A stretch of DNA of 64,000 bases from assembly GCA_001466705.2 (NCBI GenBank), contig LATX02000211.1:1674001-1738000 (forward strand), given 5' to 3'. The position numbers and the translations under genes are program-made. The notes under the pieces were generated by a model. That model did not search any database. It was not told the DNA's origin and saw nothing but the letters and a program-made list of their open reading frames with translations. This stretch comes from Moniliophthora roreri (lineage: Eukaryota; Basidiomycota; Agaricomycetes; Agaricales; Marasmiaceae). Shown one piece after another: positions 3,348 through 8,600 of this stretch. How positions within the stretch are numbered: the first letter of the stretch is position 1; each line of letters starts with the position of its first letter.

Positions 3348-4709
3348 TCACACTTGCCTAATTGCATTGTCGACGTCGACCTAGAAAGACGACGAGGTTA
3401 GTATAGGTCCTTACAGTACCTCACGCTTACTGCCTGGTTTGGTCCTATATCCTCTTATTTGAACCTGCACACAGAGGTCACTAAGGTTGAGGAGCCAGGT
3501 GGTTATTTCTACTTCTTTCAATCACATTCACTCGTCTGTATAAGTAAACTTTCAATTTGAGTGGCTGTTGGAACTTGGTTGGCTCATAAGTTGAAGTAGC
3601 TCAAGGAGCAATGGATGGGCTGCTGAATAGTATGGGTCGCACCTAATCTCAGATCGTACTGCTTCTCAGAGTACACGTTTATATTCTCCAATAAGTTACA
3701 GATTCCCCCAATCAAATCATTCTTGTGCAGAAATACGTAGACCACTCAATATAAATTTGCGATTCTAGGTCTCCATATACGTCTACGTAAGATGAGTTGT
3801 AATCTCACCTCACACTTCAATGAATTAATTCTTTGAGCGTTGATAATATTAGTGGAAATTTATTCAGCTCAAGTAATATAGCCTTACCTCGCGCTTGATC
3901 CAAATCTTGAAATCGTCAGCCCACTGGGTAATTCTGTCTGCGGCATCGACATCGACCTTATATGATTTTTTTTTTCAATACGAAACCTATCCGCTCTTCA
4001 TCGACGATACTCACATTGCGCTTAATCCAAATTTTGAAGTCGTCAGCCCATTGAGTTAATCTGTCCGCAGCGTCGACATCGGTCTGAAAATTTTTCTCAG
4101 TTCAAGAGCCGCCCGTTTTCACTGTGTCTACTTACGTCGCGTTTGATCCAGATCTTGAAATCGTCAGCCCATTGAGTTATCCTATCTGCAGCGTCGACGT
4201 CGGCCTGAAAATGTTTTTCAGTTTAAGAGTCGCCCGTCTTCACTGTTCGTACTTACATCACGTTTGATCCAGATTTTGAAATCGTCAGCCCATTGAGTTA
4301 TCCTATCCGCAGCGTCGACGTCGGCCTGAAGAATGTTATCAGTGAGACCCACCCCATCTCCGCTGTTCATACTTACATCGCGTTTGATCCAGATCTTGAC
4401 ATTGTCGGCCCATTGAGTTATCTTGTCCACAGCGTCAACGTCAACCTCAGGCTGAAATATTGACCACAGGTGAGGACGAAGACCATTGGATGTATTCATT
4501 ATCAAAAGTGTTTACCTCACGGATCCAGATCCTTGTGTTGTCCACAAGGTCGACATCAACCTGGAATGATATGGTATTAGGACGTCCCTCCATTCCTCTC
4601 GCTTTGACTGTGTGCTGACCTCTCGTTTTGCTGCAATACTGTCGACTGTTGGGGCCGCAGCGCAGGCTACTACAAGAGTGAGGACGGGTACCAAGTTGGA
4701 GAATCGCAT
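3348..4709 (-). CDS. Secreted repeat-containing RiPP precursor (Kex2-processed, UstA-like)
   Basis: This is a predicted precursor of ribosomal peptides exported through the secretory pathway and cut by Kex2. Minus-strand exons: 4709-4620 (signal peptide MRFSNLVPVLTLVVACAAAP, then a short propeptide ending AAKRE), 4560-4516 (short degenerate unit), 4451 or 4445-4377, 4325-4257, 4204-4136, 4083-4015, 3956-3888 and a terminal exon 3380-3348. Four exons are exactly 69 nt, phase 0, and each encodes one 23-residue unit: DVDAADRITQW, then ADDFKIWIKR plus an acidic or Asn residue. Lys-Arg at each unit end is the expected Kex2 cut, releasing about five near-identical peptides. The start is the ATG at 4709; a GTG just before it is not used. 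The last intron (507 nt) is unusually long, so the C-terminal exon is uncertain. The gene is divergent from a UstYa-like oxidase gene. The function as a RiPP precursor is inferred, not seen. Confidence 0.75.
3888..4451 (-). repeat. Tandem exon-intron repeat, five units
   Basis: Five tandem units of roughly 120-130 bp each consist of one coding exon (69 nt in four of them) plus one intron of about 50-60 nt. The introns are also similar between units: both middle introns contain the acagtgaa and gggcg words and end in ttttcag. Whole exon-plus-intron blocks were therefore duplicated. Short leftovers resembling the exon 3' end plus donor occur further down, near 3440 and 3800. Confidence 0.85.
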
Positions 4710-5320
4710 CACGGGGGTAATGTGTCTGGTGAAGGTTCGAGAGCTGATGGTACCATAACCTTATGGTTTCGTTATATACGCGGCAGGACCTTTGCGCTCT
4801 TCGCAGGCTAGGGTTGCGCAATCGTTGCGACACTGTAGCTTTTTCGCCACGTCGATGAGGCGGTATTATTTATGCCCCGACGGACATCAGATGCCGACTT
4901 CAATGGGCAGGGAACCCCGACCCATTCAATTTGAATATGACCTACATATTGTCATTCATAGTCACACTCAGCGTAGCTGGCAACCCTGACCTACCCATCC
5001 ATTCATTTTGAATACGTATCGCCGACAGTTATCACTTTTTGGATCAGGGACAGAGAACCGGGCACACGAGACCGGGCACAAAATAAATTCCAAAGATCGC
5101 GCTCAAGCTACTGTGGGTTGCCTGACCCTGTGAAATGCCGGGTACATGCTCCATTATCAATTGTTCGAGAACGCATAGTTGAGCACGTACTGCTTGATAT
5201 TCGGGCATAGTGGGTAATTGACCCCTAACTCGGACTCGGATATTGCGCCACAAAACCGCGCCCAAAACCGAATAAAGGACATTGTGTCCACTACCGCTTC
5301 TGTCCCCGCAATCACCCATC
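4710..5320. promoter_or_regulatory. Shared divergent promoter of precursor and oxidase genes
   Basis: This 611-bp region separates two divergent start codons. On the minus strand TATATAA at 4772-4778 lies about 63 bases before the precursor ATG. The degenerate second precursor has the same box at 7213-7219, about 62 bases before its ATG. A direct repeat of accgggcac occurs near 5057-5080 on the oxidase side. Its role is unknown. Confidence 0.55.
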
Positions 5321-6345
5321 ATGCCTCGAAAGGACTCTGAGTCCACGGATTACGCCCCCCTCCTACAGGAGGACCCGACGTTCGAGCTCAATTCGACGAA
5401 CGCGGATCCACATTATCGAAACTCTCGTTCCAAATCCCGATTCTTATACGGGATAGTTGCTCTCCAGTCCATCGTGATTGTCGTGCTTCTTACGTTACTG
5501 TCGAAGGGTGTAGCACGGAAAAGCAAGCCACTCTTGTACTGTGAGTCAAGCTAAACCATCAAGGGTTCTCAACAGATTACTCACAACATGGTTAATCCGA
5601 CTAAGCACCGGTGAATCACCTCCTCGAGGAGAAAACGGTGCAATTCCACAGTGCTGTTGGTAAAGACACCACGATCTATATGGGAGAACCATCTCCAGAG
5701 GTAGACAAAGCATGGGATGACCTGTATGGATGTAGGTCTCACCTTTCTTCAAAGGACTACTGCTCATCCATGAACAGTCGGAGTCAACAGGATTTTAAAA
5801 CACGAAGCGGACCAATTACCTGTGAAAACCGTGCGCATATCTGGCGATCCAAGTCATTACATTGTTCAGCTGGACGTCTTTCATCAACTGCATTGCCTGG
5901 TGAGTTATGTTCCGAGTTGGCGGCAATATCTGTTGATTCTGATGAATGACGACGTTGCGCATAGAACATCATTCGAAAGGCGCTTCATCGAGATTATTAT
6001 GAGCATTTGCACGCAGATTCTGGACACATGCCTGATTCCAAGGAAGATGAGGAACAGCATGTTGCTCATTGTATCGAGCATCTCCGACAGAGTATCGTTT
6101 GTGCATCAGGTCTGGTAATTTGAATTGGTCTACGTTGGTAGACGATACTAATATCACCGGTTACAGATGTTAGCACAATCGTATGGCAATGGATTCCGGA
6201 AAGAAACCAGACCATGGGCCGTTCGGGTGTTCCTCATACGTGCAAGAGCTTTGACAAGATCAGCGAGTGGGCAAGTCAACCGGAAAACCGACTTCATTGG
6301 AATGATTTTGATTTGCATGTAAAGCCTCCAGATGATGACGAGTAA
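5321..6345 (+). CDS. UstYa-like oxidase (DUF3328), copy 1
   Basis: UstYa-family (DUF3328) proteins are membrane-anchored oxidases that cyclise or oxidise fungal RiPP precursor peptides, as in ustiloxin and related dikaritins. Exons are 5321-5540, 5606-5731, 5778-5899, 5965-6109 and 6167-6345, giving 263 aa. Residues 1-40 are polar, with an acidic YAPLL segment shared by both copies. One transmembrane helix lies at about 41-61 (FLYGIVALQSIVIVVLLTLL). The two family signatures are both present: HQLHC at about 151-155 and HCIEHLRQ at about 191-198, the HxxHC...HC pattern thought to bind the metal. It is divergent from the repeat-peptide gene, its likely substrate. The second copy at 7598 has identical intron positions. 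The family assignment is strong; the substrate is inferred. Confidence 0.9.
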
Positions 6346-7151: not shown

Positions 7152-7597
7152 GTTGCAATAGGGGGATTAAACACTGCTTGAAGACTAGAGATCTGCCACT
7201 GCCTAATGTCTCTTATATAGCAAACCGCGCGGGATCATGACTAGGCCACAATTGTATAGACTCTGGCATGATGCGGCCCCCATTTCTGAGGCTTTAGCTG
7301 ATCTGACATGAGCTACAGCCGCGATAGCGATGAATATCAGGGCCATATCACTCACATGGGTCGTTATAAAGTTTATCGGGAGTGGGCTTCACGTTGTTGG
7401 GGTAAGTATCGGTGACGTGCCCATATGCTCGATAGCGTACCTGCGGCCTTGTGAGTGTTAAGGATCTCTCACTAGTGTCGTCCCTTGATTGGGGCCTGTA
7501 GTCGGTATTCAATGTTGATGTACGCAATTAAAGCATTGCCGGTACTAGAGCGATACGCTCGAGTCTTTGCTCCTGACCCCCATCATTACCCCTACTC
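7152..7597. promoter_or_regulatory. Divergent promoter of the second peptide/oxidase module
   Basis: The arrangement matches the first module: peptide gene on the minus strand, oxidase on the plus strand. TATATAA on the minus strand at 7213-7219 sits about 62 bases before the peptide ATG. No clear TATA box is seen for the oxidase gene. Confidence 0.5.
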
Positions 7598-8600
7598 ATG
7601 GCTCCAAGTCAGGAAGCGTATAAATCAGAGGACTATGCTCCCCTCCTACAGAACGAACCAGACGTGGACCTCGAGCCAAGAATCCCCCGGGATCGTTATT
7701 CTCGAATCAAGGACATAGTTATCGTCATCCAGTTCATCGTGATTGCCTCGACGCTTCTGCTGGTATCGACTACCTCCAAATACAAGAGCGATCCCCTGCT
7801 TTACTGTGAGTTTATGTCAACGGTACTACGTTCAACAAGTACGCTTACCAGACCCGCAACTCGGCTCAGCACCAGTCAATCACCTCCTTGAAGAGAAGGT
7901 AATTACGTTTCACAGCGGCGTCGGTAATGACACCACGAAATACATGGGGGAGCCATCCCCAGAGTTGGATAAAGCATGGGATGACCTGTACGGATGTAAG
8001 TCAGCATCGACTTGCTTGAAAACCCATCTTACGCGATGAACAGTTGGAATTAACAAGATCTCGAAACATGATGCAGACCAACTACCTGTCAAGACGGTCC
8101 GGATTCCAAGCGACCCCGACCATTATGTGGTTGCACTAGATGTGTACCATCAACTGCACTGCCTGGTGAGTCTCCCCGTACACAATCGATCGACAATACC
8201 TCGACAACCAACGATTTGTTCAAAGAACCTCATTCGAAAAGCGTTTCATTCAGATTATTACCACAAGCTGCACGCTGGGCATGTGGTCCATCCCAGATTA
8301 AGCGAAGAAGAGCATATCACTCACTGTATCGAGCATCTTCGACAGAGTATCATTTGTGCATCAGGTCAGCCAGCTTGAATTGGTTCGCACTGGTTGACGG
8401 TGCTAATATCACCTGTTACAGACGTCAGCACTATCGTATGGCACTGGAATTCGGAGAAAAACATGACCATAGGCCGTTCAGGTGTTCCTCACACGTGCAA
8501 GAATTTCGACAAGATCAGCGAGTGGGCAAACCAGCCGGAAAATCGGTTTTATTGGCGTGACTTTGACTTGTATGTAAGGCCTCCCGGTGACGATGAGTAA
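7598..8600 (+). CDS. UstYa-like oxidase (DUF3328), copy 2
   Basis: This is the paralogue of the oxidase at 5321. Exons are 7598-7805, 7870-7995, 8044-8165, 8226-8364 and 8422-8600, giving 257 aa. Exons 2, 3 and 5 have exactly the same lengths as in copy 1 (126, 122, 179 nt), so the pair arose by duplication. A single membrane helix lies at about 37-57 (IKDIVIVIQFIVIASTLLLV). The signatures HQLHC (about 147-151) and HCIEHLRQ (about 185-192) are intact, as are the shared GEPSPE-DKAWDDLYG region and the C-terminal GRSGVPHTCK segment. No stop or frameshift is seen, so this copy looks functional although its divergent peptide gene is degenerate. It may act on the product of the first precursor. 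Confidence 0.9.

What the first reader, a model, noticed from the sequence alone, without database searches (positions are those of the whole stretch)
3348..8600. Candidate dikaritin-type RiPP locus in a basidiomycete: two divergent precursor/UstYa modules
Seen: two UstYa-like (DUF3328) oxidase genes with HQLHC and HCIEHLRQ signatures, each divergent from a small secreted-peptide gene whose exon 1 is 90 nt and starts MRF. The first peptide gene carries repeated units ending in Lys-Arg. Known: UstYa-family oxidases act on Kex2-processed repeat precursors in ascomycete dikaritin pathways (ustiloxin, phomopsin, asperipin types). Inferred: a comparable peptide product is made here. The pairing of a clear repeat precursor with UstYa enzymes in a basidiomycete is the standout of this window.
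Basis: partly seen in the sequence, partly recalled or inferred. Interest (0 to 1): 0.95.

Follow-up and report, generated by a model that had tools for sequence, protein, structure and literature searches.

The report
Hidden tryptophan-core peptide cluster in mushroom
A mushroom-relative that infects cacao carries a gene that spells nearly the same tryptophan-containing peptide several times, one copy per exon, back to back with an oxidase gene of the kind that makes ring-shaped peptides in other fungi, which suggests that basidiomycetes may make such peptides too but that gene annotation overlooks them.

Summary
The window lies in a Moniliophthora roreri genome. Precursor 1 (minus strand, 4709-3348) has a 90-nt MRF signal exon and then phase-0 exons; 5 of 5 full-length units end WIKR, and differences between units are mostly synonymous (p=1.7e-11). 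UstYa1 (5321-6345) is divergent from it. UstYa2 (7598-8600) is divergent from a second MRF exon, but I could build no repeat unit or Kex2 site onto that exon, so the second 'precursor' looks like an empty shell. A CmcJ/NvfI-type oxidase follows.

The pairing recurs: 5 of 11 UstYa regions of this genome carry a signal-bearing dibasic repeat array, against 0 of 16 control regions (p=0.006; criterion written after seeing the repeats). In four arrays the units have Trp one or two residues before the cleavage site and no Tyr; the three placeable enzyme loci fall in one clade. A fifth, Tyr-bearing array goes with another clade.

Best explanation: a dikaritin-like RiPP locus whose UstYa oxidases act on Trp-bearing cores. 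The modification is inferred; linear secreted peptides are the main rival. Basidiomycete repeat precursors near DUF3328 genes were already reported computationally; the exon-per-core, Tyr-less form looks like a new variant.

The parts
4620..4709 (-). Precursor 1 exon 1: signal peptide exon MRFSNLVPVLTLVVACAAAPTVDSIAAKRE, 90 nt, ends with a KR site
4516..4560 (-). Precursor 1 exon 2: short divergent unit VDVDLVDNTRIWIRE, no dibasic site
4377..4451 (-). Precursor 1 exon 3: unit (PE)VDVDAVDKITQWADNVKIWIKRD
4257..4325 (-). Precursor 1 exon 4: unit ADVDAADRITQWADDFKIWIKRD
4136..4204 (-). Precursor 1 exon 5: same unit as exon 4, differing only at synonymous sites
4015..4083 (-). Precursor 1 exon 6: unit TDVDAADRLTQWADDFKIWIKRN
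3888..3956 (-). Precursor 1 exon 7: unit VDVDAADRITQWADDFKIWIKRE
3348..3380 (-). Precursor 1 probable last exon VDVDNAIRQV-stop; reached by a 507-nt intron, so less certain than the others
3263..3289 (-). Twin of the last exon (VDVDNANR-stop) behind the same 12-nt acceptor sequence
5321..6345 (+). UstYa1 (identical to Moror_7932): exons 5321-5540, 5606-5731, 5778-5899, 5965-6109, 6167-6345
7062..7151 (-). Peptide gene 2, exon 1 only: MRFHIFVSLLALAMACAAVPSPADTVTDEE, no dibasic site
6870..6904 (-). Piece resembling the last exon of precursor 1 (71% to the reference copy at 3260-3294); no unit exon seen between it and exon 1 of gene 2
7598..8600 (+). UstYa2: exons 7598-7805, 7870-7995, 8044-8165, 8226-8364, 8422-8600
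9876..10832 (+). CmcJ/NvfI-family oxidoreductase (NF041278, 288 bits against a cut-off of 80), possible tailoring enzyme

Best explanation
The locus makes a secreted multi-core RiPP precursor and its oxidases. Precursor 1 enters the secretory pathway by its MRF signal peptide. A Kex2-type protease cuts after each KR and a Kex1-type carboxypeptidase trims the KR, releasing several near-identical peptides of about 21 residues such as DADVDAADRITQWADDFKIWI. The membrane-anchored UstYa1, presumably copper-dependent like its characterised relatives, perhaps with UstYa2 as a UstYb-like partner and the CmcJ/NvfI oxidase for tailoring, oxidises or cross-links the peptide through Trp, most likely the Trp two residues before the cleavage site. 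Shown here: exon anatomy, coding constraint, enzyme family and motif, divergent pairing, recurrence of the pairing in the genome, and Trp at the same end of the unit in four arrays. Inferred: expression, cleavage, the enzyme-substrate relation, copper, and the Trp chemistry.
For: Eight exons with lengths divisible by 3 and GT-AG introns. Synonymous differences dominate between units (28.5 over 52.2 sites against 13.5 over 223.8; p=1.7e-11). UstYa1 and UstYa2 are far above the Pfam cut-off with both HxxHC motifs at least 90% conserved over 28 relatives and placed on two helices of the model, as described for the copper enzyme CctR (PMC12435403). A signal-bearing dibasic array in 5 of 11 UstYa regions against 0 of 16 controls, divergent from a UstYa gene or remnant in all five. 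In 12 of 12 units typed from the four Trp arrays a Trp sits one or two residues before the cleavage site and none has Tyr. UstYa of loci A (both), B and E group in one clade, support 96/97. Kex2-type P-domains are present in the genome.
Against: No transcript or product has been seen. Precursor 1 contains no Tyr, the residue cross-linked in ustiloxins and phomopsins. No tyrosinase match lies on any of the five contigs that bear arrays. In Umemura's survey Trp content was not higher in KEPs near DUF3328 genes (20.5% against 24.5%), while Tyr content was (65.6% against 38.2%) (PMC7329392). Basidiomycete KEPs with a C-terminal Trp have been seen as linear peptides (PMC9769878). 6 of 11 UstYa regions have no array. 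On the tree, 66 of 500 label shuffles were as clustered as the Trp label. The array criterion was written after the repeats were seen. One antisense frame shows the same synonymous bias.
Confidence: 0.63

Rival explanations
1. Precursor 1 is an ordinary Kex2-processed repeat protein whose peptides are secreted linear (pheromone-like or interaction peptides), and the UstYa genes beside it serve another substrate.
For: Linear KEP peptides, some with C-terminal Trp, were detected from agaric precursors (PMC9769878). Umemura and Le Marquer describe pheromone-like basidiomycete KEPs, and 17 of 76 such KEPs have DUF3328 genes nearby all the same. At locus E both units start with an X-Pro dipeptide after KR, which STE13 could remove.
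Against: Array and UstYa gene are divergent neighbours in 5 of 11 UstYa regions against 0 of 16 controls, and the paired enzymes of the Trp arrays form one clade. A consistent STE13 dipeptide is missing: 2 of the 4 full units of locus A that follow a KR start with X-Ala, and none at loci B and D as read.
Confidence: 0.22
2. The module is a decaying relic in this genome: several copies are broken, and the window copy may no longer be expressed.
For: The C148 locus has a UstYa match with 7 stops inside; UstYa fragments stand beside CmcJ copies at C110:1.75 Mb; peptide gene 2 is an empty shell; the last intron of precursor 1 is unusually long (507 nt).
Against: UstYa1 and UstYa2 are open over their whole length with all motif residues. 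The units of precursor 1 are kept by purifying selection, although that records the past as well as the present.
Confidence: 0.1
3. The repeat peptides are structural surface peptides like Rep1 of Ustilago maydis, and the oxidases belong to a different small-molecule pathway.
For: Rep1 is a Kex2-processed repeat protein of a basidiomycete (PMC6339444, passage). DUF3328 enzymes also act outside RiPPs, e.g. CctR in cyclochlorotine biosynthesis.
Against: The units differ strongly between loci except for Trp and the dibasic site, unlike a structural repeat (inference). Among the 5 neighbouring ORF pieces scanned no synthase core enzyme was recognised, but that scan was partial.
Confidence: 0.05

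Closest known systems
Dikaritins (ustiloxins, phomopsins, asperipin-2a, victorin)
   Same: Signal peptide, repeated cores parted by Kex2 sites, linked UstYa/DUF3328 oxidases with the HxxHC...HxxHC motif
   Different: Basidiomycete; each core is its own phase-0 exon; no Tyr in precursor 1, Trp instead; no tyrosinase match on the array-bearing contigs. Victorin also lacks the Tyr link and is closed between a C-terminal Phe and an internal Leu (PMC9233826, passage)
Basidiomycete KEPs with DUF3328 genes nearby (Umemura 2020)
   Same: Kex2 repeat precursor with a DUF3328 gene nearby; their type P-3 has Trp (passages)
   Different: The passages seen describe no exon-per-core layout and no divergent pairing; whether this locus is in their supplementary table could not be read
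Agaric KEPs with C-terminal Trp (Vogt 2022, C. cinerea KEP 490115)
   Same: Secreted repeat precursor, Kex2 site, C-terminal Trp in the core
   Different: Reported as linear peptides; no mention of a linked UstYa gene in the sections and passages read
Plant burpitides of lyciumin type
   Same: Works-like comparison only: copper cyclase with a four-His site, multicore precursors, Trp-indole-N to carbon link (PMC12186524, passages); the resemblance of the two metal sites is stated in PMC12435403
   Different: Unrelated enzyme family (BURP domain); a Trp link is only a hypothesis here

Membership tests
Dikaritin RiPP | N-terminal secretion signal on the precursor | tested here: met
   MRF exon with a hydrophobic stretch; judged by sequence, no dedicated signal-peptide program was available
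Dikaritin RiPP | Several near-identical cores parted by dibasic Kex2 sites | tested here: met
   6 KR sites and 5 full-length units
Dikaritin RiPP | Linked UstYa/DUF3328 gene with HxxHC(x)nHxxHC | tested here: met
Dikaritin RiPP | Tyr in the core as cross-linked residue (ustiloxin, phomopsin, asperipin types; victorin is an exception) | tested here: not met
   0 Tyr in 172 aa of precursor 1; Tyr units occur at locus C (C72) only
Dikaritin RiPP | Tyrosinase gene in the cluster (ustiloxin, phomopsin) | tested here: not met
   19 PF00264 matches in the genome, none on C110, C83, C72, C23 or C148 (counts are lower bounds)
Dikaritin RiPP | Oxidatively modified or cyclic product | not testable with these tools
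   needs mass spectrometry
UstYa / DUF3328 enzyme family | Pfam PF11807 above its cut-off, N-terminal membrane helix, two HxxHC motifs | tested here: met
Kex2-processed repeat protein (KEP) | Signal peptide plus repeats parted by Kex2 sites | tested here: met
Alpha-pheromone-like KEP | STE13 X-Ala/X-Pro dipeptide after the Kex2 site in every unit | tested here: not met
   After KR the four full units of locus A start DA, DA, DT, NV; locus E does start with EP in both units

The most novel reading that the evidence does not exclude
[quoted passage not shown] Because every core is its own phase-0 exon, splicing can change the number and mix of cores without breaking the frame, and the same layout has hidden basidiomycete dikaritin-like precursors from proteome-based mining.
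Probability: 0.33. Interest if true: 0.82.

Novelty: new variant of a known kind. Interest (0 to 1): 0.62.

Why it matters
Umemura 2020 suggested that cyclization of such precursors 'might hardly occur in Basidiomycota' (passage). Here one agaric genome holds five UstYa regions with a repeat array. In four of them the units are split by introns, and the two precursors that I searched (A and E) gave no match in a 5.8-billion-protein collection although UstYa1 is annotated there. The apparent scarcity may therefore be partly an annotation artefact. Splice-aware searches beside UstYa genes of other agarics can test this directly, and 'Trp just before the Kex2 site' is a concrete chemical prediction for a copper-enzyme family whose substrate range is still being mapped.

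Tried and rejected
Protein-database search with precursor 1 (7993 candidates scored) and precursor E (8 candidates): no match at E<=10. All 3 protein searches are spent, so precursors B and C were not searched. PDB by sequence (only weak Lon protease matches, best E 0.15) and Foldseek with the UstYa1 model (45 matches, none with E<=0.001): nothing useful. Literature search for exon-per-core precursors listed unrelated splicing papers. The second 'precursor' of the window was considered and rejected as a repeat precursor. Reading the array on the other strand: one antisense frame shows the same synonymous bias because its third positions coincide (frame as1); rejected because splice sites, signal exon and KR sites fit the minus strand. 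The Pfam DUF1890 match of precursor 1 (21 bits, cut-off 25) was rejected as below its cut-off.

Weak points of the control: the criterion was written after the repeats had been seen; of the 16 control regions 10 are from a random draw (but I took those 10 out of the 40 drawn so as to spread them over contigs), 1 is the left flank of the window (L027) and 5 are tracts of the window itself, partly transposon; for L025 the best rows printed are antisense or wrong-frame matches of the same array, so a hit means 'array present', not 'right frame'. The tree used 20 of the 41 proteins plus three models; P0009, P0016, P0004 and others were left out.
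Full report
WHAT IS THERE. The window is G000:C110:1674001-1738000 of a 59.4-Mb genome. UstYa1 is identical over 263 aa to Moror_7932 of Moniliophthora roreri MCA 2997, an agaric of the Marasmiaceae. Contigs C83 and C23 have exactly the lengths of the longest contigs listed for hits P0005 (a WG66-tagged M. roreri protein) and P0010, so the genome is most likely a WG66-tagged M. roreri assembly.

PRECURSOR 1. On the minus strand, exon 1 (4709-4620, 90 nt) encodes MRFSNLVPVLTLVVACAAAPTVDSIAAKRE. 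Seven further exons follow; all eight have lengths divisible by 3, with introns of 51-64 nt except the last of 507 nt. Exons 3-7 each carry one full-length unit, e.g. ADVDAADRITQWADDFKIWIKRD; 5 of 5 end KIWIKR plus one residue. Tandem Repeats Finder sees a 121-nt period of exon plus intron. Exon 2 is a short divergent unit without a dibasic site. A twin of the last exon lies 91 nt further on. The 172-aa product has 11 Trp, no Tyr and 6 KR. Its 3' end is the least certain part of the model.

IS IT CODING? Between the four adjacent pairs of full-length units there are 28.5 synonymous differences over 52.2 sites and 13.5 non-synonymous over 223.8 sites; binomial p=1.7e-11. The pairs share units, so the p-value is rough. 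The antisense frame whose third positions coincide shows the same bias (pN/pS 0.11); splice sites, signal exon and KR sites decide the strand.

ENZYMES. UstYa1 and UstYa2 are 64% identical, modelled with five exons each, and match Pfam UstYa far above its cut-off. Over 28 relatives (of 41 found), H151, H154, C155, H188, H191 and C192 are at least 90% conserved. The AlphaFold2 model (mean pLDDT 79.6; the other four models lower, 62-72) puts the motifs on two helices, 148-163 and 182-202, behind a helix 39-63 that I take for the membrane anchor. This is the layout reported for CctR, a binuclear copper enzyme (PMC12435403; abstract and passages). Copper was not tested here. The gene at 9876-10832 is a CmcJ/NvfI-family oxidoreductase (288 bits).

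PEPTIDE GENE 2. Its 90-nt exon 1 is intact, and a piece resembling the last exon of precursor 1 lies at 6870-6904. No unit exon with a dibasic site follows in a model that I could build. I call it an empty shell. UstYa2 may thus be a second oxidase for precursor 1; this is inference.

THE SAME PAIRING ELSEWHERE IN THE GENOME. PF11807 gives 23 exon-level matches, all within 11 ten-kb regions. A translated self-comparison and then one fixed criterion (signal-like M stretch, tandem 14-aa repeats 42-200 nt apart, [KR]R) found arrays in 5 of 11 UstYa regions: the window, L018, L022, L023 and L025; and in 0 of 11 plus 0 of 5 control regions; Fisher p=0.0057. The criterion was written after the repeats had been seen. 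The six regions without an array are L017, L019, L020, L021, L024 and L026. I read parts of L017, L019, L021 and L024 by eye and saw signal-bearing small ORFs in some but no dibasic repeat; L020 and L026 were only scanned.

THE UNITS. Locus A (window)...QWADDFKIWIKR. Locus B (C83, L022, minus strand, two exons per unit as I read it): DGKLIETDEFIWGRRAE. Locus D (C148, L023): VDRFDWRAADWKRE. Locus E (C23, L025): P[AF]FIDWKKDDKENxxAWKR behind the signal exon MRFSLALLALAVACAAAPAPLDEEKRE. In 12 of 12 units typed from A, B, D and E a Trp stands one or two residues before the cleavage site (for exon 2 of A, before its single arginine) and none has a Tyr. Locus C (C72, L018) differs: DVSLDGAAYVYTDNERR, a 17-aa period without introns between the units, Tyr at -7 and -5; one of its units has Cys in place of a Tyr. 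In all five regions the array is read divergently from a UstYa gene or remnant, at C23 with about 3 kb of other DNA between. Exon borders of B and D were read by eye. Locus D is decayed: its UstYa match has 7 stops inside and the junction after its signal exon is not canonical. At locus C the nearer UstYa copy carries an in-frame stop and the second copy is open.

ENZYME CLADES. In a 23-row tree (20 of the 41 proteins plus three models), UstYa A1, A2, B and E group with Paramarasmius and Marasmius sequences (96/97 support). The open UstYa of locus C groups with another M. roreri copy outside that clade (98/97). D's broken gene was left out; its last piece is 52% identical to UstYa1. So Trp units go with one enzyme clade and Tyr units with another, but on few loci, and 66 of 500 label shuffles were as clustered as the Trp label: suggestive, not proof. 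CmcJ-like copies lie beside UstYa genes in the window and at C83 (in pieces, both sides), and beside UstYa fragments at C110:1.75 Mb (two copies), but gave no match in the 10-kb regions of C72, C23 or C148.

WHAT IT DOES. Most likely Kex2 and Kex1 release peptides of about 21 residues and UstYa oxidises them at Trp. Kex2-type P-domains occur at two places on C45. That the oxidases act on these peptides rests on the recurring divergent pairing; that they act on Trp rests on its retention while the rest of the unit diverges. Neither has been shown by chemistry. Against the Trp step stands Umemura's finding that Trp is not enriched in KEPs near DUF3328 genes while Tyr is.

LITERATURE. Umemura 2020 (PMC7329392; abstract and passages) found 1680 KEPs in Basidiomycota, 103 near DUF3328 genes, suggested that cyclization 'might hardly occur' there, and names one KEP type (P-3) with Trp and DUF3328. 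Vogt 2022 (PMC9769878; abstract, sections 5 and 10, passages) found linear KEP peptides in agarics and notes KEPs with a C-terminal Trp. Le Marquer 2019 (PMC6339444; passages), a review (PMC9233826; passages), a lichen survey (PMC12048977; passages), burpitides (PMC12186524; passages). P. ostreatus has 16 UstYa-like genes (PMC8893723; passage). The nine literature searches, among them Moniliophthora with RiPP, with DUF3328, dikaritin or ustiloxin, and UstYa with Agaricomycetes, listed no paper whose title or abstract start describes this locus; most subscription papers are not in that library and supplementary tables could not be read, so Umemura's table may contain some of these arrays.

VERDICT. 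This is a dikaritin-like locus of a variant type: basidiomycete, core per exon, Trp instead of Tyr. It meets the layout features of dikaritins, fails the typical Tyr and tyrosinase features, and should not be called a dikaritin until a modified product is seen.

Noticed in passing
L018 (G000:C72:754501-764500), about 2949-2575 minus strand, and 5030-5300 minus strand: A Tyr-type repeat array (DVSLDGAAYVYTDNERR) divergent from a UstYa gene, and between the two UstYa genes of this region a further stretch with EYAYP-like words near dibasic sites, read by eye.
   Followed up: partly
L026 (G000:C110:1749501-1759500): Two CmcJ-like copies (72-85% identical pieces) alternate with UstYa fragments about 16 kb right of the window: a decayed tandem of the same module.
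   Followed up: partly
L022 (G000:C83:584001-594000): CmcJ-like pieces on both sides of the array-UstYa pair and a tetraspanin-like piece matching the gene at window 12004-12120: a segmental duplication of the window locus.
   Followed up: partly
L019 (G000:C72:906001-916000), 5307 and 6259 plus strand, 3334 minus strand: Three small signal-bearing ORF starts around a UstYa gene without dibasic repeats; possibly single-core or repeat-less partners.
   Followed up: no
L027 (G000:C110:1664001-1674000), about 6860-7510 plus strand: Cys-rich repeated protein segments (DGGCGFGEAQPNDG, ECETACCGF) left of the window.
   Followed up: no
window 25561-30629 minus strand, and about 17239-17589 and 38224-40638 plus strand: Retrotransposon-like ORFs and repeated transposase-like ORFs, judged by eye from the list.
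   Followed up: no
window 35867-37923 and 51946-54075, plus strand: Two long near-identical gene copies in the right half of the window.
   Followed up: no
window about 1665-1762, minus strand: Looks by eye like an intron-bearing tRNA gene; ARAGORN with its bacterial setting found no tRNA in the window.
   Followed up: partly
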